A DNA stretch of 64,000 bases from positions 62,001 through 126,000 of the forward strand of contig NZ_VHLH01000007.1 in NCBI RefSeq assembly GCF_006516965.1. Direction: 5' to 3'. The position numbers and the translations under genes were made by a program. The number at the start of each line of letters is the position of its first letter. Positions within the stretch are counted from its first letter, which is position 1. Shown piece after piece: positions 49,591-59,438 of the stretch. Source of the stretch: Pararhizobium mangrovi (lineage in GTDB: Bacteria; Pseudomonadota; Alphaproteobacteria; Rhizobiales; Rhizobiaceae). Under the pieces are notes generated by a model. That model ran no database searches. It worked only from the letters and a program-made list of their open reading frames with translations, and was not told where the DNA came from.

Positions 49591-51093
49591 TCAGTCTTGC
49601 CGATCCGCTCCGTCATCCTGCCGGAGCGGATCGGCAACTTTCGGCCAGATCGATCGCGTCAGCTTCCGGTAGTTCGTTTCGACCGGATCGGTGGGGTAGG
49701 AGGAGGGCGCAGCGACATGGATGATGCGGGAGGAGACGGGCTCGAAACCGGCGTAGAAGTGGTTGGTCGATTTCACGAGGAGCAGCGCCTTCCCGGAGAT
49801 GTCGATGCCCATATTAGTGAAAATCGACGGTTCGTAGGTCTGAGTTCGGCTCGAAATCAGAATGATGTCGATCTGCGTACCGACAAGCCGGACGACCGCC
49901 GCACGGCCGAGAGTGACGCGGCTTCTTCGAAATGTCTGCCATCCCTCGTCGGCAAGGGTGAGGATATCGACCTCCGCATCGATCGGCGGACCGGCATCCG
50001 GGCTCGCCTTGCCGGCAAGACGCATCCGCAACCGCGCGCCTTCGCCGGCGGCGTGGCAGAAGCCGACCGCCACGGGATCCCAGATCGTCGCTACCGCGAC
50101 GTCCTCGATGCCACGCTGCATGATGGCCTTCAGAACGTGCGTGCCGTCTCCCGCGGTTCCGCCACCGGGATTGTCCCATGTATCGGCGATGGTGACCGGC
50201 TTGTCGGGATGTTCGCGTCGGGTCGAAAGGGCGGCGTCGAGGCCGTCCTCGACCGGCAGGATCGGCATGGCCGTGCGACCGCGAAGGCGGTAGAGATCGA
50301 GGCCGATTTCACGGGCGAGACGGTCGCCGCCTTCGCGATCGTCGTCGGTGGCGACGAGGATGCGCGTTCCGATCTCCGGCACGTCGCCCGCCATGAAGCC
50401 ATGGATGATCGAGACGGAGAGAACCGAACCGGTGCCTTCCAGCTGCTTCAGGCGATCGACGAAGGAACGCATCGGCTCTTGCGTCGTCGGATAGATGCCG
50501 ATCATCCGGCAATCGAAGGCCGATAGAACGGGCCTGATCTCGCCACGCAACGCACGCAGGCTGATATCGACGACGTGCTCTCCGCGTTCGTAGAAATCCG
50601 TATGTGGAAATTCGAGAAACGCAGCGGCGAAGTTCAGCTGCGCAACGCGCTTCGGCGTCAGGTGGCTGTGCGGATCGAACTCGCACGACAGGAACCGATC
50701 CGGCCCGATGATCGTGCGCACGCGCTCGAGAAGATCGCCTTCGCAGTCGTCGTAGCCCTGCGCGACCATGGCGCCGTGAAGGCCGAGAACGACGCCGTCC
50801 ACCGGCATGGCCTCATTCAACTGGTCGAGGATCTCGTCGCGCAGGTCCTCGTAAGTTTCCTTCTTGATCAGGCCGGCCGGCTCGGCCCAGGAAGACGATC
50901 CCTCGACGATCTCCAGGCCCTCGTCGTCGCGCCCGCGTTGACGCAGGATCACGACAGGCGACGAGCACAATGTCGGCGTCTCCGGATGAAGGCCGGGTCC
51001 GGCGTAGAAGGCGGCCTCGAAGGCCCGCCGATCGGTCGGAACGGGAGAGAACGTGTTGGTTTCCGTCGCAAGCGATGCCGTAAAAATCCGCAT
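49591..51093 (-). CDS. M81-family metallopeptidase (microcystinase C / MlrC-like)
   Basis: This 500-residue protein has the M81 N-terminal domain with FTASLATETNTFSPVPTDRRAF, VVLGLHGAMVAQGYDDCEGDLLERVR, FDPHSHLTPKRV and FLEFPHTDFYERGEHVV, which hold the likely zinc ligands. The MlrC C-terminal domain has TIADTWDNPGGGTAGDGTHVLKAIMQRGIEDVAVATIWDP. Relatives cleave small peptides or open lactam-like rings; in catabolic operons their substrates are mostly unknown. It converges on RidA. The last 15 or so codons form a 16-bp perfect hairpin (49597-49637). Confidence 0.92.
   Translation of the reverse strand: MRIFTASLATETNTFSPVPTDRRAFEAAFYAGPGLHPETPTLCSSPVVILRQRGRDDEGLEIVEGSSSWAEPAGLIKKETYEDLRDEILDQLNEAMPVDGVVLGLHGAMVAQGYDDCEGDLLERVRTIIGPDRFLSCEFDPHSHLTPKRVAQLNFAAAFLEFPHTDFYERGEHVVDISLRALRGEIRPVLSAFDCRMIGIYPTTQEPMRSFVDRLKQLEGTGSVLSVSIIHGFMAGDVPEIGTRILVATDDDREGGDRLAREIGLDLYRLRGRTAMPILPVEDGLDAALSTRREHPDKPVTIADTWDNPGGGTAGDGTHVLKAIMQRGIEDVAVATIWDPVAVGFCHAAGEGARLRMRLAGKASPDAGPPIDAEVDILTLADEGWQTFRRSRVTLGRAAVVRLVGTQIDIILISSRTQTYEPSIFTNMGIDISGKALLLVKSTNHFYAGFEPVSSRIIHVAAPSSYPTDPVETNYRKLTRSIWPKVADPLRQDDGADRQD
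49597..49637. repeat. 16-bp perfect inverted repeat inside the 3' end of the M81 coding sequence
   Basis: The arms 49597-49612 and 49622-49637 are perfect inverted copies over 16 bp with a 9-base loop. They end four bases before the peptidase stop codon and encode its C-terminal residues ADPLRQDDGADRQD. It may be the peptidase terminator, or a palindromic element that was captured into the coding frame. Confidence 0.55.
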
Positions 51094-51683
51094 GGTGTTC
51101 CCCGTCCGCGCAATGGCAGGCCAGATCCTGCCCGCTCCGTCTCCGGTCCTGAATAGCGCGTCCCATCCCCGGCTCGAAAGCTTAAATCGTATGGCTCCCT
51201 CACGTGCCGGCGTCTCACCAGGCGATATCCGCCAGCGGAGGCGTGCACGGCTCGGCTATCTTCGAGATCGCAAATCCTTCCGTCCGTAGCCGCATGATGG
51301 AAAACGGTCGATAGCCTTCCGGATGGCAAGAGCGGGACAGGCCCTGATGGACGATCGGGATACCGACCCTATCCCCATCCAAGCCCGCGCTTGCGAGCCG
51401 TATATTCTACTTCTGATTTAAACGGCGGGCTTGAGCGTAATGAATGGTCGTGTTCAGTTGGACGAGGTGGCGACATTGAAGACGCCCATGAAGTGGAAGC
51501 ATCGTGGTCGGATCATCGTGGACGGTCGACCATAGCCAACGTCGACCGTCGCCATTCGGGGATTTTGGGGATGACGCGAACGGCAAGATCGTTCGAGGTA
51601 GTGCATCGGCGAACGTCTGGTGAGGCGAACCTTGCAGCGGTACGTGACCGCGAAACGTCGGTGGTGAAGGTAAGGAGGAGGGG
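51094..51683. other. intergenic region upstream of the Shango-like operon
   Basis: This 590-bp gap separates the divergent M81 and sngA genes. The clearest structure is a perfect 10-bp inverted repeat at 51521-51550. A short AT-rich patch near 51400-51420 (TATATTCTACTTCTGATTTAAA) could hold a promoter. Several short frames look like no known protein. Confidence 0.45.
51521..51550. promoter_or_regulatory. perfect 10-bp inverted repeat upstream of sngA
   Basis: GACGGTCGAC (51521-51530) and GTCGACCGTC (51541-51550) are exact inverted copies around a 10-base spacer, 133 bp before the sngA start. It could be an operator or a 5'-leader hairpin. The symmetry is seen; the role is inferred. Confidence 0.4.
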
Positions 51684-54377
51684 TTGCGTGCTTTTCTGCA
51701 GATGCTTCGGATCGCGTTCCTGTACGCGATCCTGTTCTTCCTTTGCATGATGGTTCTCGTTCCGTTGCAGAACGTGTGGCCGATCGGTTTCCAGATGCTG
51801 TTTGTGTTTGCGACGCCCGCGGCCATCGTCTGGTGGTTCGAGCGCTCCCGGTCGAAGCGAAAAGAAAACCGGATAGCGAAGCGCGTCGAACCGGAACTAT
51901 CCATTCCAAAACGACCACAGAGACGTTCGTCAAAACCCGCGATGGCGCTAGATACGGCGGACCCCACCGAAGATCCCTTACTGAGCGACGTGCGTTCCGC
52001 CTTGCCGAAGCAGGCATCGGCACAGGAAGCCGTCTTGCCGACTGATCAGGATACTCCATCGTCGACATCACCGGATACGCCGGAACGTGGTCGCGCGGAC
52101 GATCCGCCGGCGTCCAAGCCGATGTCGCAACCGCGGAAAAACGACGATACCGAACCATCGAACGCATCACGTTACGTTCCACCGGAACAGGACAATGCCA
52201 AGCTCGCGCAGATCGCACGTCGGATCGGCCCGGAAATGGCAGCGATCGCTGCCCGGCAGCAGGCGCAGAAAGCCTCCGTGCGCCACACGAAGCGCATCCA
52301 AGGGTGGATCCCCTTCGGCGACAGCACATCGGTTGCGGGACGCGACCTAGGCGGCTTGATCTATGTCGGGACGCCGCCTTCGCTAAGCGACGGTGGATAC
52401 GGACAAAAGTGTCGCGCTTATATCGATCCGTCGTTGCCGGTCGCGAGACCGGGCCTCGATCGAGACGGGCGGGAGATGCCCTATTGGCCGGGGTATTCCA
52501 ACATCCCTGCGCGCTGTCGTGCGACTTATCTCGACTGGCTCGCGGGCGGCCGCACCGATCGATCCCGTGATCCCGGCTATATGTTCCTTTATTTCTACGG
52601 CCTGGAAAGACGCTTCTTCGTCGACAACCCTTCGGACGAGGAAAGGCAACAAATCGTCGACGAAGTCCGGCGTCTTGTCCAGCTTTACGCGGATAACGGT
52701 TCCGTCCAGCGCTACCTCGGCGAATTCATCGATATCGCGCAGGTAGCAACGATGGAGATCGAAGCGATCGAGCCGATCTTCGAGCGGTCCGGTTGGGATC
52801 TGCCGCTTTCGCTGCGGATCGCGATCGGGACGCGCATTGGGCGGGAAGAGCCGCTCGATGCGCGATGGATGGCGAGCTGGCTCTTTTGCCATCCGGAGCA
52901 CAGTCTGCGGACCGCTGCGACGCGATGCCGGGACGAATTCCTTGCCCTGTTCCGGATCCGGTTCGGCGAGCGCTTTCCCGACGGTTTGAAGGTGAACAAG
53001 CCGAAGAGGGTGCTGAAGGCAACGTACCGGGCTGCCTCGAGCGAGTTTACCGGAACGCTCGCTCCGACGGTTGACGACAAGCCGATCCCGGATATTGGCC
53101 GGCTTCGCAAGCCTGTCGAGATCGCACAGTCGATCGCCGACGAGGTGATGGACGAACTCGACAAGCTGAGCCGGTTCCTCGGTCGCCGGCCGGACGAGCG
53201 TTCGAGCGCGGCGGCACACGCGCTTCTCCCGGCCAAGCTTCGGCCTCTCTTTCCGTCCGCGGAACTGGAGGCACTGAGGGGATGGGCGGCGGACCGCGTA
53301 GCGGAAGGCGGCTTCGTTACCCTTGCCGACGCGATCGAACGACTGGAGGGCGAACGGCCGGGAAAGATCGGCAAGCGACAGTTCACCGGTGCTGCCGATG
53401 CGCTTGCACGCACCGGCTTCGGGCTCGCACCCGACCCCCGCTTTGCCCTGCGCTCGCCGAAGCCCGACGAGCCGGTCGTCGTGTTCGATCTTGGCGAGCG
53501 CGTCGAAAAGCTCGAGGACGTTTCGCACCGTTACCGCAGCGTATTGATGGAAATCGCGCTCGGCTCGTTCGTCGCCCATGCGAATGGCCACGTCGCGGAT
53601 GGCGAACGGCAGTCGCTCGAGGAACGGATCGCGTCGAGCGACGGTCTGAACGATCAGGAACGGCGCCGGCTCGCCGCCAATCTCGCCTGGTTCCTCGCGG
53701 TGCCGCCGGACATGAGCCTGCTTCGCCGCAAACTCAAGGACATGGCGGAACGAGACGAAACCGCTATCCGCGCTGCACTTGTTGCCGCCGCCCGTTCCGA
53801 CGGAACGATCCATGCCGAGGAGGTGGCCAGTCTTGAGCGGGTCTACAAGGCGCTCGGCCTCGATGCGAACCGCGTCTATTCCGATCTGCATTCCGGAGAC
53901 CTGGCGGACACCCTTCCAGTCGTGCGGGCAGCGCGGACGGGCGCACCCGGCGAGGCCATACCGGGCGATCGAGACCATGCGGGACCGATGCTGGACACCT
54001 CGCGGATCGCCGCGATCCGGTCCGATACGCAACGGGTCTCGTCCGTCCTGGGAGAGATTTTCGACATCGAAGAGGAAGACGATGTTCCGGACGTTGAGGC
54101 CGGACTGCCTGGCGGTCTCGACCGGAACCATGCCGCGCTCGTGCGTGCGCTGATCACGATGCCGCATTGGAGCGAAGAGGAATTCGCCGAACTCTGCGAA
54201 AGGCATTCGTTGCTTGCGTCGGGCAGTCTCGAAACCATCAACGAATGGGGCTTCGAGAGGTACGACGAAGCATTGCTCGACGAGTACGAAGGCTACGACA
54301 TCACGCCGGAGGTCGCCGCTGCGATCGGCCGGGAAACGATTGGGGAGAGGGGAAATGTCGAAACTGAAACCGCGTGA
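51684..54377 (+). CDS. sngA: TerB-N/TerB/TerB-C domain protein, SngA of a Shango antiphage system
   Basis: This 897-residue protein begins with two likely membrane helices (about 8-27 and 33-52). A basic stretch and a long disordered Pro/Ser/Asp-rich linker (about 60-195) follow. TerB-N spans about 205-410 (QGWIPFGDS, YWPGYSNIPARCRATYLDWLAGGR, GYMFLYFYGLERRFF). A TerB domain lies at about 615-735 with the paired acidic turns HANGHVADGERQSLEERI and AARSDGTIHAEEVASLE. TerB-C is at about 815-880 (ALITMPHWSEEEFAELCERHSLL, GFERYDEALLDEYEGYDITPEV). The TTG start has AAGGAGGAG upstream. It overlaps sngB by 23 bp. The name rests on gene order with an ATPase and helicase. Confidence 0.87.
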   Translation: MRAFLQMLRIAFLYAILFFLCMMVLVPLQNVWPIGFQMLFVFATPAAIVWWFERSRSKRKENRIAKRVEPELSIPKRPQRRSSKPAMALDTADPTEDPLLSDVRSALPKQASAQEAVLPTDQDTPSSTSPDTPERGRADDPPASKPMSQPRKNDDTEPSNASRYVPPEQDNAKLAQIARRIGPEMAAIAARQQAQKASVRHTKRIQGWIPFGDSTSVAGRDLGGLIYVGTPPSLSDGGYGQKCRAYIDPSLPVARPGLDRDGREMPYWPGYSNIPARCRATYLDWLAGGRTDRSRDPGYMFLYFYGLERRFFVDNPSDEERQQIVDEVRRLVQLYADNGSVQRYLGEFIDIAQVATMEIEAIEPIFERSGWDLPLSLRIAIGTRIGREEPLDARWMASWLFCHPEHSLRTAATRCRDEFLALFRIRFGERFPDGLKVNKPKRVLKATYRAASSEFTGTLAPTVDDKPIPDIGRLRKPVEIAQSIADEVMDELDKLSRFLGRRPDERSSAAAHALLPAKLRPLFPSAELEALRGWAADRVAEGGFVTLADAIERLEGERPGKIGKRQFTGAADALARTGFGLAPDPRFALRSPKPDEPVVVFDLGERVEKLEDVSHRYRSVLMEIALGSFVAHANGHVADGERQSLEERIASSDGLNDQERRRLAANLAWFLAVPPDMSLLRRKLKDMAERDETAIRAALVAAARSDGTIHAEEVASLERVYKALGLDANRVYSDLHSGDLADTLPVVRAARTGAPGEAIPGDRDHAGPMLDTSRIAAIRSDTQRVSSVLGEIFDIEEEDDVPDVEAGLPGGLDRNHAALVRALITMPHWSEEEFAELCERHSLLASGSLETINEWGFERYDEALLDEYEGYDITPEVAAAIGRETIGERGNVETETA

Positions 54378-55662
54378 ACGCGATGCCATCGTTCAGGCGT
54401 TGCGCGCCGGCGTCGTGCCAAAACTCGGTCTGCGCCACGTGCAGGTCGGTCGGGTGCGCGAGATCGAGGAACTCGTCAAGGATATGGATCGCATTGCCGA
54501 AGGGGGGGGCGCCATCCGTCTTGTCGTCGGCGAGTACGGATCGGGCAAGACCTTCTTCATGAACCTGATCCGGTTGGTCGCGCTCGAAAAGGGTCTGGTC
54601 GTCATGTTCGCAGATCTTGCGCCCGATCGGCGTCTGCAGGCGACCGGTGGCCAAGCGCGCGGGCTGTACGCGGAAATGGCGCGCAACCTTTCGACCCGGA
54701 CGAAACCCGACGGCGGTGCGCTGGCGAGCGTCGTCGAGCGCTTCGTTTCGCAGGCGCAGCGCGACGCCGAGACGCGCGACGTGCCGACGGGCTCGATCAT
54801 CCGCGAACGGCTCGGATATTTCGAGGAGCTGACCGGCGGCTTCGAATTCGCCGAGGTGATCCGTCGCTACTGGGAAGGTCACGAGACCGGCGACGACGAG
54901 CTGAAATCCGCCGCTCTGCGCTGGCTGCGCGCAGAATTCGCGACCCGTACCGACGCGCGCAAGGCGCTCGGCGTCCGCACGATCATCGACGATGCGAGCG
55001 TCTACGACCATCTCAAGCTGATGTCGGCCTTCGTGCGCGAGGCGGGCTACAAGGGTTTGCTCGTCGGCCTCGACGAAATGGTGAACCTCTACAAGCTCGC
55101 GTCCGCCCAAGCACGGAACGCCAATTACGAACAAATCCTGCGCATTCTCAATGACGTCCTGCAGGGCAGTGCGGAGCATCTCGGTTTCCTCCTTGGCGGT
55201 ACGCCGGAATTCTTGATGAACACGCGCCGCGGCCTTTACAGCTACGAGGCGCTACAGTCCCGGCTTGCGGAAAACACCTTTGCGCGTGACGGGCTCGTCG
55301 ACCTTTCCGGGCCCGTGATCCGGCTTTCGAACCTGACGCCGGAGGATCTGTTCGTGCTTCTCTCGAACGTGCGCCGTGTCGTGCAGGGCAAGGACGAGGC
55401 GATCCCGGACGAAGCGCTCGAAGCGTTCATGGCGCATTGTGCCAACCGCATTGGCGAGGCGTATTTCCGCACGCCGCGGAACACCGTTACCGCGTTCGTC
55501 AATCTGCTGGCGATCCTCGAACAGAACCCCGGCGTCGAATGGCGCGATCTCATCGAGGAGATCGAGGTCACGGAGGATCGTGGCGAAGATCTCGCCGACG
55601 TCGACGAAGCGGCCGGTGCGCAAACGCCGGGCGACGACGACCTCGTCAGCTTCAAGCTCTGA
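54355..55662 (+). CDS. sngB: BrxD-like P-loop ATPase (DUF2791 type), SngB of a Shango system
   Basis: This 435-residue protein has Walker A VVGEYGSGKTFFMNLIRL (57-74), Walker B GLLVGLDEMVNLYKL (234-248) with Asp240-Glu241, and a sensor-like FLLGGTPEFLMNTRRGLYSYEALQSRL (about 278-304). An early VGRVREIEELVKDMDRI segment also matches BREX BrxD-type ATPases. The ATG at 54355 lies inside the end of sngA, with GGGAGAGGGG before it. In related defence loci such ATPases act with a superfamily II helicase, here encoded next. It is probably the motor or switch of the complex; that role is inferred. Confidence 0.9.
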   Translation: MSKLKPRERDAIVQALRAGVVPKLGLRHVQVGRVREIEELVKDMDRIAEGGGAIRLVVGEYGSGKTFFMNLIRLVALEKGLVVMFADLAPDRRLQATGGQARGLYAEMARNLSTRTKPDGGALASVVERFVSQAQRDAETRDVPTGSIIRERLGYFEELTGGFEFAEVIRRYWEGHETGDDELKSAALRWLRAEFATRTDARKALGVRTIIDDASVYDHLKLMSAFVREAGYKGLLVGLDEMVNLYKLASAQARNANYEQILRILNDVLQGSAEHLGFLLGGTPEFLMNTRRGLYSYEALQSRLAENTFARDGLVDLSGPVIRLSNLTPEDLFVLLSNVRRVVQGKDEAIPDEALEAFMAHCANRIGEAYFRTPRNTVTAFVNLLAILEQNPGVEWRDLIEEIEVTEDRGEDLADVDEAAGAQTPGDDDLVSFKL

Positions 55663-55671
55663 CGTCGTACG

Positions 55672-57846
55672 GTGAGCGAGGTTTTCGACACACTGGCGCA
55701 TCCGGTTCGAAAGTGGATCCGGAACCAAGGCTGGCGCGAGCTGCGCGCCATACAGGCAAACGCGATCCGATCGATCTACGGGCGCGACGGCGATCTGATC
55801 GTCGCTGCGTCCACGGCTGGTGGCAAGACCGAGGCCGCGTTCCTTCCGCTGCTTTCGCAGGTCATCGACGATCCGAGCGACGAAGGCGGTTTCGACCTTC
55901 TCTATATCGGCCCGCTCAAGGCGTTGATCACGGATCAGGCGAACCGGCTCGACGACATCTGCAGGGAGGCGGAGCTACCGGTCGTTCCGTGGCACGGCGA
56001 CGTATCGCAATCGATCAAGGCTCGCGCGCTGAAGCGGCCTCGCGGCGTTCTTATGATTACGCCGGAATCGCTCGAAGCGCTGTTCATTCGGCGCGGACTG
56101 GAGATACCGCGTCTCTTCGGTGCGACCCGGGCCGTCGTCATCGACGAACTCCACACCGTGCTCGACAGCGAACGCGGTGTGCAACTCGCTTCGCTTCTCA
56201 ACCGGCTGGAACTTACGGTCGAACGGCGGATCCGTCGGGTCGGGCTTTCCGCAACGCTTGGGGACATGGATCTGGCGCGTGCATATCTCCGATCGGAGGA
56301 TGCCGCTGATGTCGACCTGATCGAGGCCGAAAGCAGCGAGGCGGAATTGCGGCTGCAGCTTCGCGGCTACCTTGCAGGCGGAAAGGGTGACGATGCGCCA
56401 CCGGCGACCGATGCCGTCGCTTCTCACCTTTTTGCGCATCTTCGAGGCAGCGACAATCTTGTCTTCGCCGGCGCACGCGCATCCGTGGAAGTTTATGCGG
56501 ATCGGCTTCGTGCCCTCTGTGAGCGGGAAAACCTGCCACAGGAATTCTATCCGCATCACGCCAGCCTGTCGCGCGACCATCGCGACTTCGTGGAACGCCG
56601 GCTCAAGGATGACGGCAAGCCGACGACCGCCGTGTGCACCTCTACCCTAGAGCTCGGCATCGATATCGGGGATGTCGTTTGCGTCGCACAGATCGGCGCG
56701 CCGTTCAGTGTCGCCGCACTGAGGCAGCGGCTCGGCCGCTCCGGTCGGCGGCCTGGCCAGCCGGCAATCCTGCGCCAATATGCGGTCGAGTCGCGACTGA
56801 CGGCCGAAAGCAACTTTGCGGATCGTCTACGGCTCGGGCTGGTCCGTGCGGTGGCGATGATCGAGCTCTTGCTCGAAGGATGGTGCGAACCGCCGAAGCC
56901 GCAGGCACTTCACCTCTCGACGCTCACGCATCAGATCCTTTCCGTCATCGCCGAACGCGGTGGCGCCTCCGCAAGCCATCTCTACCGTGTGTTATGCCGC
57001 ACCGGTCCGTTCCGCATGGTCACCAAGGCGATCTTTGCGGATCTTCTCCGCGTGCTTGGCAATGCCGATGTCGGCTTGATCGAACAGAGCGGAAGCGGAC
57101 TTCTTCTGCTCGGACCGACTGGCGAGAGGCTCGTCGAGCACTACGGCTTCTACGCGGTCTTCAACACGCCCGAGGAATACCGGCTCATCGCCGGCGGCAA
57201 CGATCTTGGCACCGTTCCGGTCGACAACGTTCTGTCGCCCGGCATGATGCTGATCTTTTCCGGCCGGCGCTGGCTCGTCCTCGAGATCCACGAGCGGGAG
57301 AAAGTCATCATGGTCGCCCCTTCCGAAGCGGGTACGCCGCCGACCTTCCGCGGCACACCGGGCGATATCCACGATACGGTCGTCGAGCGGATGTTCGAGC
57401 TTCTCAAAGGTGATGCGAAGCCCGTCTACATGGATTCCTTGGCTCTTGAAATGCTGGACGAAGCACGAGCGAACTATGCGCGCATCGGCTTTCGCAAGGA
57501 TCGCATCGTCTCGACCGGTGAGCGCTCGACCATCCTCGCCACCCGTGCCGGTACCGTGAAGACGACCACGCTGGCGCTCGCGCTTCGATCCTTCGGCCAC
57601 AAGGTGGAGCCGCACGACGGCTTTCTGACGATCAACGAGAACGATGATGGTCCGGTTGTCACCGAGGCGCTGGCACGCCTTGCCGGCGAAGAGGAAAGGG
57701 AGGTTTTCGGCGACGGGGCAAACCTGATCTTCGAGAAGTTCCACCCCTATCTGTCGCGCGAACTGTTGGTGAAGGACGCGCTGTCGTCGAGGGTCGATCT
57801 TCCCGCTTTGCCGAAGCTCTGCGCATCGTTGCTATCCAGCGAATAG
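55672..57846 (+). CDS. sngC: Lhr/BrxHI-like superfamily II DNA helicase, SngC of a Shango system
   Basis: This 724-residue DEAD/DEAH-type helicase has motif I ASTAGGKT (46-53), Ia GPLKALITDQ, Ib TPESLEALF, motif II DELH (158-161), motif III SAT (193-195), motif V TSTLELGIDIG (323-333) and motif VI QRLGRSGRRPGQ (352-363). The remaining C-terminal half contains an Lhr-like winged-helix and unknown domain. It begins at a GTG at 55672, 9 bp after sngB. As part of the TerB/ATPase/helicase module it likely acts on invading DNA. A hairpin follows the stop. Confidence 0.92.
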   Translation: MSEVFDTLAHPVRKWIRNQGWRELRAIQANAIRSIYGRDGDLIVAASTAGGKTEAAFLPLLSQVIDDPSDEGGFDLLYIGPLKALITDQANRLDDICREAELPVVPWHGDVSQSIKARALKRPRGVLMITPESLEALFIRRGLEIPRLFGATRAVVIDELHTVLDSERGVQLASLLNRLELTVERRIRRVGLSATLGDMDLARAYLRSEDAADVDLIEAESSEAELRLQLRGYLAGGKGDDAPPATDAVASHLFAHLRGSDNLVFAGARASVEVYADRLRALCERENLPQEFYPHHASLSRDHRDFVERRLKDDGKPTTAVCTSTLELGIDIGDVVCVAQIGAPFSVAALRQRLGRSGRRPGQPAILRQYAVESRLTAESNFADRLRLGLVRAVAMIELLLEGWCEPPKPQALHLSTLTHQILSVIAERGGASASHLYRVLCRTGPFRMVTKAIFADLLRVLGNADVGLIEQSGSGLLLLGPTGERLVEHYGFYAVFNTPEEYRLIAGGNDLGTVPVDNVLSPGMMLIFSGRRWLVLEIHEREKVIMVAPSEAGTPPTFRGTPGDIHDTVVERMFELLKGDAKPVYMDSLALEMLDEARANYARIGFRKDRIVSTGERSTILATRAGTVKTTTLALALRSFGHKVEPHDGFLTINENDDGPVVTEALARLAGEEEREVFGDGANLIFEKFHPYLSRELLVKDALSSRVDLPALPKLCASLLSSE

Positions 57847-58205: not shown

Positions 58206-59438
58206 ATGATCCAGATGGCTTTGCGTTCCGGTCATGGTCGCCTTTTAGGCAGGGTAAGGATTCCAGAAGCCCTGCGTGACGACTATGCGGCCTTCGTCCT
58301 GAAGCGGCAGGAGCGCACCACGTTGCCGGCGCTCATGGTCGGCACGGCGATCATGGTCGGCCTGTTCGCGCTCGACTGCTGGATCGTGCCCGACGTGCTC
58401 GGCATGGCGGCTGCCATTCGTTTCGGTATCGGCCTGCCTATTGCCGCAGCCTTCTACATCTATCTCTATTCGGGCGGCCGCCCACTGTGGATGCACTATG
58501 CGATCGGCGGTAGCACGGCACTCCTTTTCGGCACGCTTGCCTGCGTGCTCGTCGTCAACTCCTATGCGCCACTCGCGCCAATGTACCTGACGGCGAACAA
58601 CGTCACCGTCATGTTCGTCGTCATCATTCTCGGGTTTCCGCCACCCTTCGCAGCCGCCATGGCGTTGGCGATCATCGTCGTGCAGGCTGGCGTCCTGTCG
58701 ATGTCGCACGCCGCTTCCGTAACGCTCCTCGTTCTGATGACGGGCATCTCGCTGGCAATCGCGGCGGCCGGACTTTACGGCAATCTGTGCATGGACCGCG
58801 ATCGGCGCCTTCAATTCCTCAGCAAGCATCGGGATCGCCAGCAGCTCCGCGCTCTCGCGTCGCAGAACGTGCTGCTCGAACGTCTGTCGGCTCTCGATCC
58901 GCTGACCAGCCTGTCGAACCGGCGCGGTTTCGATGCGGTCATGGCCTCGGCGATCGCCGATGCGCGAGCCGAGCCCGCGACGACTGCGGTAGCGCTCGCC
59001 ATGGTCGATATCGACCATTTCAAGCTCTTCAACGATGCGCGGGGCCATGTTGCCGGCGATGCGGCGCTTCGTGCCGTCGCGGAAGCGCTATCCGGCGCCG
59101 TCGGCGAGCACGACCTCGTCGCACGCTACGGCGGCGAAGAATTCGCCGTGGTCATGCCGGTGACGGAGCCGCTTCTTCTCGAGATGGTGGCGGCACGTCT
59201 TCGCGCAGCCGTCGACCGTCTGTATCTCGACCATCCATCGAGCCCGACGGCGAGGAACATCACCGTATCGATCGGCATCGCCTACGCCGATCGCACGAGC
59301 CTGCCGGGTTTGACGCCACAGGTCCTGACCGAGGCGGCCGACGTCGCGCTCTACAGCGCCAAGAACGCCGGACGCAACCGTTTCGTTATCCGCGCATGCG
59401 GGACGGACCTCGAGCCGCTTGCCGTCAACGCACGCTGA
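58206..59438 (+). CDS. membrane-bound diguanylate cyclase (GGDEF domain)
   Basis: This 410-residue protein has about six membrane helices (40-195) and a cytoplasmic GGDEF domain (225-395). It has DPLTSLSNRRGFD (231-243), VDIDHFKLFNDARGHVAGD and the active-site GGEEF (309-313), so it should make cyclic di-GMP from two GTP. The inhibitory I-site normally reads RxxD five residues before GGEEF, but here it is GEHD, so product inhibition may be absent. An ATG at 58215 is an alternative start. It stands alone after the Shango-like genes. Confidence 0.92.
   Translation: MIQMALRSGHGRLLGRVRIPEALRDDYAAFVLKRQERTTLPALMVGTAIMVGLFALDCWIVPDVLGMAAAIRFGIGLPIAAAFYIYLYSGGRPLWMHYAIGGSTALLFGTLACVLVVNSYAPLAPMYLTANNVTVMFVVIILGFPPPFAAAMALAIIVVQAGVLSMSHAASVTLLVLMTGISLAIAAAGLYGNLCMDRDRRLQFLSKHRDRQQLRALASQNVLLERLSALDPLTSLSNRRGFDAVMASAIADARAEPATTAVALAMVDIDHFKLFNDARGHVAGDAALRAVAEALSGAVGEHDLVARYGGEEFAVVMPVTEPLLLEMVAARLRAAVDRLYLDHPSSPTARNITVSIGIAYADRTSLPGLTPQVLTEAADVALYSAKNAGRNRFVIRACGTDLEPLAVNAR

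What the first reader, a model, noticed from the sequence alone, without database searches (positions are those of the whole stretch)
51684..57846. Three-gene TerB / BrxD-like ATPase / Lhr-like helicase module matching the Shango antiphage system
Seen: a TerB-N/TerB/TerB-C protein, a 435-residue P-loop ATPase and a 724-residue SF2 helicase, tightly packed (23-bp overlap, then 9 bp). Known: Shango is described as exactly TerB-like SngA, ATPase SngB and helicase SngC. Inference: this is a chromosomal Shango locus in a rhizobial-type genome with no visible mobile-element flanks. It is the best candidate for a defence function in the window, although the family itself is not new.
Basis: partly seen in the sequence, partly recalled or inferred. 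Interest (0 to 1): 0.75.

Follow-up and report, generated by a model that had tools for sequence, protein, structure and literature searches.

The report
Intact Shango anti-phage operon, likely acquired
Three adjacent genes form a complete copy of the known bacterial anti-virus system Shango, probably acquired from other bacteria, and comparison with relatives suggests that its first protein sits in the cell membrane, a clue to how this poorly understood system works.

Summary
Window 51684-57846 holds three intact, overlapping or abutting genes (897, 435 and 724 aa). PADLOC profiles call them SngA (1.2e-87), SngB (4.2e-175) and SngC (7.8e-268); gene order matches E. coli, Klebsiella and roseobacter Shango loci. 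ATPase and helicase motifs are intact. It is a new member of a known system, not a new kind.

SngB is 83-89% identical to copies in 16 carrier genomes tested, whose RpoB is only 71-81% identical to the host's; three same-family or same-order genomes show the reverse (RpoB 76-85%, SngB 59-64%). (2) SngA begins with a predicted transmembrane hairpin, a positive stretch and a ~100-residue disordered tether, outside the PADLOC match. A hydrophobic N-terminal segment occurs in 72 of 73 close and 10 of 15 divergent full-length SngAs, E. coli and Klebsiella included. I found no statement of this in the papers I could search. (3) SngB-SngC resembles the BrxD-BrxHI ATPase-helicase pair of type 2 BREX.

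Proposed mechanism (inferred): SngB loads or switches the Lhr-like helicase SngC on phage DNA, tethered by SngA at the inner membrane. The effector step is unknown.

The parts
51672..51679 (+). Ribosome-binding site AAGGAGGA before the TTG start of sngA
   Evidence: sequence
51684..54377 (+). sngA: TerB_N-TerB-TerB_C protein, 897 aa
   Evidence: PADLOC SngA 1.2e-87, matched residues 184-879; Pfam
51711..51830 (+). Predicted transmembrane hairpin of SngA (hydropathy segments at residues 10-28 and 31-49), followed by a positive stretch
   Evidence: hydropathy; AlphaFold helices 2-28 and 34-68
51879..52193 (+). Low-confidence, presumably disordered tether of SngA (residues 66-170)
   Evidence: pLDDT below 50 over 66-140 and 142-171; 12% mean identity for residues 53-207
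52314..52919 (+). TerB_N domain of SngA (residues 211-412)
   Evidence: Pfam PF13208 2e-58
53553..53867 (+). TerB domain of SngA (residues 624-728); position 634 is N where the other 24 of 25 aligned SngAs have D
   Evidence: Pfam PF05099; 2ou3 Z 8.6, rmsd 9.4, 139 aligned; column count
53988..54317 (+). TerB_C domain of SngA (residues 769-878)
   Evidence: Pfam PF15615 1.9e-19
54355..55662 (+). sngB: BrxD-like P-loop ATPase, 435 aa
   Evidence: PADLOC SngB 4.2e-175; Pfam BrxC_BrxD 1.1e-151
54529..54552 (+). Walker A of SngB, GEYGSGKT
   Evidence: identical in 88 of 102 SngBs; G59, G62, G64 and K65 invariant in all 102
55057..55080 (+). Walker B of SngB, LLVGLDEM
   Evidence: D240 and E241 invariant in 102 of 102 SngBs
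55672..57846 (+). sngC: Lhr/BrxHI-like SF2 helicase, 724 aa
   Evidence: PADLOC SngC 7.8e-268; model matches Lhr 5v9x, TMq 0.66
55807..55830 (+). Helicase motif I of SngC, ASTAGGKT
56143..56154 (+). Helicase motif II of SngC, DELH
56725..56748 (+). Helicase motif VI of SngC, QRLGRSGR

Best explanation
It is a complete, probably functional, horizontally acquired Shango anti-phage operon. Shown: three intact genes of the SngA, SngB and SngC families in the usual order, with intact ATPase and helicase motifs. Inferred mechanism: SngA is a membrane-tethered scaffold. Its N-terminal transmembrane hairpin and flexible tether hold the TerB_N-TerB-TerB_C core on the cytoplasmic face of the inner membrane. 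SngB, an AAA+ ATPase related to BrxD (itself classed as ORC/Cdc6-type in PMC12839542), loads or licenses SngC, an Lhr/BrxHI-like helicase, on foreign or replicating phage DNA near the membrane. ATP-driven unwinding then blocks phage DNA establishment or replication, or exposes DNA to nucleases encoded elsewhere, since no nuclease was recognised in the three proteins. Confidence is about 0.95 that it is Shango, 0.8 for horizontal acquisition, 0.75 that SngA is membrane-anchored, and 0.3 for the helicase-loading and unwinding steps. The number below is for the whole statement.
For: Profiles: (SngA 1.2e-87, SngB 4.2e-175, SngC 7.8e-268). Gene order as in annotated loci. Motifs: Walker A/B in 102 SngBs; SF2 motifs I, II, III, V, VI kept, with conservative variants, in 18 SngCs. 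SngC model resembles Lhr bound to ssDNA (5v9x, TMq 0.66, E 1.7e-26). SngA anchor: AlphaFold helices over residues 2-28 and 34-68, block pLDDT 86-95 for residues 1-60; hydropathy segment in residues 1-118 in 72 of 73 close and 10 of 15 divergent full-length SngAs, against 2 of 73 and 1 of 15 anywhere after residue 200; net charge of +3 or more in the 20 residues after the last segment in 51 of 85, against 6% of control 20-mers. Transfer: SngB identity exceeds RpoB identity in 16 of 16 carriers tested, the reverse in 3 of 3 same-family or same-order genomes; the SngB tree puts the window in a 99/99-supported group of those carriers, apart from rhizobial SngBs. Defence role of the family: PA14 Shango lowers plating of many, not all, tested phages 10-100-fold (PMC10250203, passages). 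BrxD-BrxHI described as a linked dyad with a proposed helicase-loading role (PMC12839542, passages).
Against: No phage test of this locus, and none of its clade seen in print. The anchor is a prediction: 3 of 15 divergent SngAs (L142, L164, L167) show no segment even at a lower threshold, so it cannot be essential to every Shango, though upstream starts were not checked there; 34 of 85 anchored SngAs do not reach +3 after the last segment. The loading and unwinding steps are analogies from BREX and Lhr. No effector is identified, and SngB was not folded. N634 in the TerB domain departs from the D of the other 24 aligned SngAs. No clean empty site was found, so the insertion itself was not seen. 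SngB and RpoB evolve at different rates, so the transfer argument rests on the reversed order of identities, not on the values; the RpoB alignment of one kin genome (G003) covers residues 541-1381 only.
Confidence: 0.5

Rival explanations
1. Shango, but SngA is itself the killing effector: SngB-SngC sense phage DNA and trigger the membrane-bound TerB protein to disrupt the membrane or ion balance (abortive infection).
For: Predicted membrane anchor in most full-length SngAs held; TerB domain; no nuclease recognised in the operon.
Against: Only one or two segments in most and a long tether, not a pore-like architecture; [quoted passage not shown]
Confidence: 0.25
2. A remnant of a type 2 BREX system: SngB and SngC are BrxD and BrxHI.
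For: BrxD profile 7.1e-45 and BrxHI 1.9e-116; shared Pfam family BrxC_BrxD.
Against: Shango profiles score far higher; NCBIfam BrxD 149.4 bits against a cut-off of 350; no PglZ (PF08665) in the host genome; sngA directly upstream as in Shango.
Confidence: 0.03
3. A stress-response or DNA-repair operon (Ter-type) kept for reasons other than phages.
For: TerB domains belong to stress-associated Ter systems (recalled); none of the seven neighbouring genes scanned is, on my reading, a defence gene.
Against: Patchy distribution (11 of 398 genomes of the host's phylum at E 1e-60, host included), 695 of 72,556 plasmid records with an SngB-like match, defence and conjugation genes beside relatives, proven phage inhibition by the PA14 homologue.
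Confidence: 0.08
4. An inactive Shango relic.
For: N634 in place of the near-invariant D in TerB.
Against: All three frames open, operon spacing kept, catalytic motifs intact.
Confidence: 0.06

Closest known systems
Shango (PA14 and E. coli; sngABC)
   Same: Three genes, same order, same families; ATPase and helicase families; a predicted N-terminal segment also in E. coli and Klebsiella SngA.
   Different: SngA 897 aa against 769-776 aa in the E. coli and Klebsiella loci read here, with a two-segment anchor and a longer stretch before TerB_N; protein identity to the two E. coli loci 29-30% (SngA), 57-59% (SngB), 40-41% (SngC). The PA14 sequence, and the exact E. coli strain of the founding paper, were not compared.
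Sulfitobacter faviae megaplasmid 4 Shango (NZ_CP116427; PMC10221251)
   Same: SngB 89% identical; published as Shango.
   Different: On a plasmid and followed by a PD-(D/E)XK nuclease gene and a UvrD-helicase gene; the window has neither after sngC.
BrxD-BrxHI pair of type 2 BREX
   Same: Homologous ATPase and helicase profiles, adjacent genes.
   Different: TerB protein instead of the BREX core; no PglZ in the genome; scores below NCBI's BrxD cut-off.
Lhr helicase (Mycobacterium, 5v9x)
   Same: Best solved-structure match of the SngC model, TMq 0.66.
   Different: 21% sequence identity; Lhr is a genome-maintenance helicase (recalled).

Membership tests
Shango | SngA: TerB-domain protein | tested here: met
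   PADLOC SngA 1.2e-87; TerB_N, TerB, TerB_C over Pfam cut-offs
Shango | SngB: BrxD-like ATPase of the SngB family | tested here: met
   PADLOC SngB 4.2e-175, 581 bits against 152 for BrxD
Shango | SngC: SF2 helicase of the SngC family | tested here: met
   PADLOC SngC 7.8e-268, 889 bits against 388 for BrxHI
Shango | Gene order sngA-sngB-sngC in one operon | tested here: met
   order and spacing; compared; co-transcription not tested
Shango | Inhibits phage | not testable with these tools
   shown for PA14 Shango (PMC10250203 passages), not for this locus
Type 2 BREX | BrxD above NCBI's curated cut-off | tested here: not met
   149.4 of 350 bits
Type 2 BREX | PglZ in the same genome | tested here: not met
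   PF08665: no match in the host genome, listed as 99.58% complete
Type 2 BREX | PglX, PglW and BrxC/PglY beside brxD-brxHI | tested here: not met
   the neighbours scanned are ABC-transporter, RidA, M81, GGDEF, phosphate-transporter, IMPase and sulfatase genes; these families were not searched genome-wide

The most novel reading that the evidence does not exclude
Shango is a membrane-tethered version of the BREX-type ATPase-helicase pair: SngA holds SngB-SngC at the inner membrane so that phage DNA is met as it enters or replicates there, and the variable tether and anchor are the fast-evolving part.
Probability: 0.35. Interest if true: 0.6.

Novelty: new member of a known kind. Interest (0 to 1): 0.33.

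Why it matters
As a locus it adds one more Shango, of a type not seen in the 40 relatives searched. The comparison it prompted gives a testable handle on a system whose mechanism I could not find described in the papers searched: most full-length SngAs held here, including those of E. coli and of a Klebsiella IncF plasmid, carry a predicted membrane segment outside the region matched by the standard profile. Deleting that segment would show whether Shango works at the membrane.

Tried and rejected
Truncated or remnant BREX: rejected. Hidden nuclease in SngA: Foldseek against the PDB gave no match at E 0.001 or better; the second look showed TerB (2ou3, Z 8.6) and winged-helix matches of Z 5.1 to 6.6 at the C-terminus, a range that can mean only a common arrangement. 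Domains were not folded alone and SngB was not folded, so a nuclease is not excluded. SngA exchange between loci: one search seemed to show some SngAs (L010, L014, L034, L035, L037) matching the window only near the N-terminus; one search aligned L010 and L034 full length at 55-56% and the others to them at 85-93%, so that was a search artefact. L008 SngA (560 aa) really differs: no N-terminal anchor, different N-terminal half. A conserved fourth gene: the PD-(D/E)XK plus UvrD pair after sngC was seen in 5 of 80 genome loci; of 77 loci with a complete sngC, 15 have too little DNA after it to tell; it is not part of the core. Empty site: of 20 M81 neighbourhoods of the same family, none holds a match to the GGDEF, phosphate-transporter, IMPase or sulfatase genes that lie right of Shango here; five phosphate-transporter neighbourhoods hold neither Shango nor M81. 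The junction is specific to this lineage and no clean empty site was found. Border repeats: only short or imperfect pairs that look like chance. DNA shared by the window's flanks and other Shango loci: none at E 1e-3 apart from the host's own DNA. Integrases: 10 matches in the host genome, 8 over the cut-off, none on this contig. Phage records: no SngB match in 50,697; 4 loci in IMG/VR. One plasmid record falls in the 90-95% band but is not among the listed best; I did not see it. Rows dropped before the anchor counts: ten short or cut SngAs (L001, L003, L008, L043, L060, L077, L166, L168, L169, L172), L009, L065, L066 (no SngA ORF), L171 (no SngA), and L002 and L004, whose genomes are present as L145 and L147. 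The 15 divergent SngAs are not independent: L141, L159, L160 and L162 form one close group. Correction to my notebook: it says the M81 gene follows RidA or permeases on the same strand in 20 loci; the recount is 15 of 20 loci with such a neighbour, same strand in all 15.

Full report
Observation. The TTG start of the first has AAGGAGGA ending four bases before it. Pfam finds TerB_N, TerB and TerB_C in the first, BrxC_BrxD in the second, and DEAD plus Helicase_C in the third.

Identity. PADLOC profiles give SngA 1.2e-87, SngB 4.2e-175 and SngC 7.8e-268. Next best for the last two are BrxD (7.1e-45) and BrxHI (1.9e-116). NCBIfam's BrxD model scores 149.4 against a cut-off of 350, and the host genome has no PglZ match. 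The order sngA-sngB-sngC is that of annotated loci in Sulfitobacter, Bradyrhizobium, Aeromonas, Klebsiella and E. coli. A Sulfitobacter faviae copy is in print as Shango (PMC10221251, passages and table). Shango inhibited many, not all, Pseudomonas phages tested when the PA14 operon was expressed in PAO1 (PMC10250203, passages). The E. coli discovery paper and the 2012 Ter-system analysis were not held and are recalled only.

Intactness. SngB Walker A GEYGSGKT is identical in 88 of 102 aligned SngBs, and Walker B residues D240 and E241 are invariant in all 102. SngC motifs I, II, III, V and VI are kept, with conservative variants, in all 18 aligned SngCs. The SngC model (mean pLDDT 77.0, pTM 0.74) matches Mycobacterium Lhr bound to ssDNA best (5v9x, TMq 0.66, E 1.7e-26).

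SngA anchor. The PADLOC match starts at residue 184 of SngA. Before it lie two hydrophobic segments (10-28 and 31-49), a positive stretch and a tether. The AlphaFold model (mean pLDDT 76.3, pTM 0.53, 25 sequences) gives helices 2-28 and 34-68, with block pLDDT 86-95 for residues 1-60, then values below 50 over 66-140 and 142-171. Mean identity of 24 other SngAs to the window is 33% in residues 1-52, 12% in 53-207, 58% in TerB_N, 61% in 413-620, 55% in TerB, 47% in 731-768 and 53% in TerB_C. A segment of mean hydropathy 1.6 or more within residues 1-118 occurs in 72 of 73 close full-length SngAs (the exception, L047, starts late) and in 10 of 15 divergent ones; two more pass 1.5 (L146, L165); L142, L164 and L167 do not. 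After residue 200 the same threshold is reached in 2 of 73 and 1 of 15. The 20 residues after the last segment carry a net charge of +3 or more in 51 of 85 anchored SngAs (window included), against 6% of control 20-mers, which fits a cytoplasmic core; 34 of 85 fall short, one of them (L141) because a doubtful later segment was taken as the last. Dropped rows are listed under Tried and rejected. I found no statement of a membrane anchor: 'transmembrane' does not occur in PMC10250203; the searches for Shango with transmembrane, membrane-anchored or TerB domain gave three papers, whose passages on Shango say nothing of it. The library lacks most subscription papers.

Horizontal acquisition. The closest SngBs listed are 88-89% identical over the full length, mostly in bacteria named as Rhodobacterales genera, and many of them on plasmids. 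In 16 carrier genomes tested of the 80 found, RpoB is 71-81% identical to the host's (14 of them 71-73%, Maricaulis 75%, Stappia 81%), below the SngB identity (83-89%) in every one. In two same-family genomes and one same-order genome RpoB is 85%, 84% (partial) and 76%, but SngB 64%, 59% and 62%. In the SngB tree (37 rows kept of 97 after removing near-duplicates; midpoint root; bootstrap not fully settled) the window falls in a 21-row group with 99/99 support, made of such carriers plus one gammaproteobacterium (Guyparkeria), with which it pairs weakly (93/75). Two rhizobial-family copies and a Bradyrhizobium copy form another group (98/92). The close type was not seen in the other 40 relatives searched.

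Surroundings. On the left is an ABC-transporter operon with RidA and an M81 peptidase gene; on the right a GGDEF gene, a Na/Pi transporter, an inositol-monophosphatase gene and a sulfatase gene. Of seven neighbours scanned with PADLOC, one matched: the ABC-transporter ATPase to mads_3 (2.2e-31), which I read as a generic ABC match. In relatives, 15 of 20 M81 neighbourhoods hold RidA or the permeases, and in all 15 M81 is on the same strand; in the window it is on the opposite strand. The junctions are specific to this lineage among the genomes examined, and no clean empty site was found.

Distribution. The SngB profile at E 1e-60 matches 11 of 398 genomes of the host's phylum, host included; an SngB-like match occurs in 695 of 72,556 plasmid records, 545 of them predicted conjugative; a match to Klebsiella sngB DNA in 479 of 5426 E. 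coli genomes; none in 50,697 phage records.

Mechanism. Shown: the parts and their motifs. Inferred: SngB acts like BrxD, proposed to load BrxHI (PMC12839542, passages), on the Lhr-like helicase SngC; SngA tethers the pair to the membrane. SngC with BrxHI, DruE and DpdJ has been placed in a potentially distinct defence helicase clade (PMC12278908, passages). No nuclease was recognised in the three proteins. In some relatives a PD-(D/E)XK nuclease and UvrD-helicase pair follows, but the same pair occurs beside BREX and other genes without Shango in the stretch shown, so it is a separate accessory.

Verdict. A confirmed, intact, probably horizontally acquired Shango locus: a new member of a known kind. 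The general point worth testing is the predicted SngA membrane anchor.

Noticed in passing
L088:555-9954 (Sulfitobacter sp. D7 plasmid); L179, L181, L178, L180, L182: A PD-(D/E)XK protein and a UvrD/PD-(D/E)XK protein (AddB- and AddA-like, my reading), in some records with a ResIII-type helicase, form an accessory module; the first protein has a match in 64 plasmid records. The pair follows sngC in Sulfitobacter, Methylorubrum CM4 and, after one small gene, Polymorphobacter, but stands beside BREX genes in Mesorhizobium and beside multiubiquitin/ThiF genes in Rhizobium phaseoli. A candidate defence module in its own right.
   Followed up: partly
window 49591-51093: The M81 (MlrC-type) peptidase gene is on the opposite strand to its RidA and ABC-permease neighbours, whereas 15 of 15 relatives' loci that hold RidA or the permeases have it on the same strand: a small inversion next to the Shango operon.
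   Followed up: partly
window 58206-59438: The GGDEF diguanylate-cyclase gene right of Shango has a 74% identical paralogue on contig C18 of the same genome and no match at E 1e-60 in 150 other genomes of the family.
   Followed up: partly
window 53583-53585 (SngA residue 634): N in place of D in the first acidic repeat of the TerB domain; the other 24 of 25 aligned SngAs have D. The second repeat (D706, E713) is intact.
   Followed up: partly
L008:55-1737: A 560-aa SngA-like protein without an anchor, with a different N-terminal half, upstream of an 89% identical SngB: possible recombinant SngA.
   Followed up: partly
L010:11532-14309; L005:11770-13797; L063:12201-15122; L056:11951-14728; L012:14632-15705: Neighbours of related Shango loci include a HerA-like and SIR2-like pair, an OLD-like TOPRIM ATPase, and MobA/MobL, TraG_N and TrbL conjugation genes: defence and transfer genes around relatives.
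   Followed up: partly
Klebsiella plasmid records; L141 as the one read: 452 of the 695 plasmid records with an SngB-like match are from Klebsiella; only L141 was opened and holds all three Shango genes.
   Followed up: no
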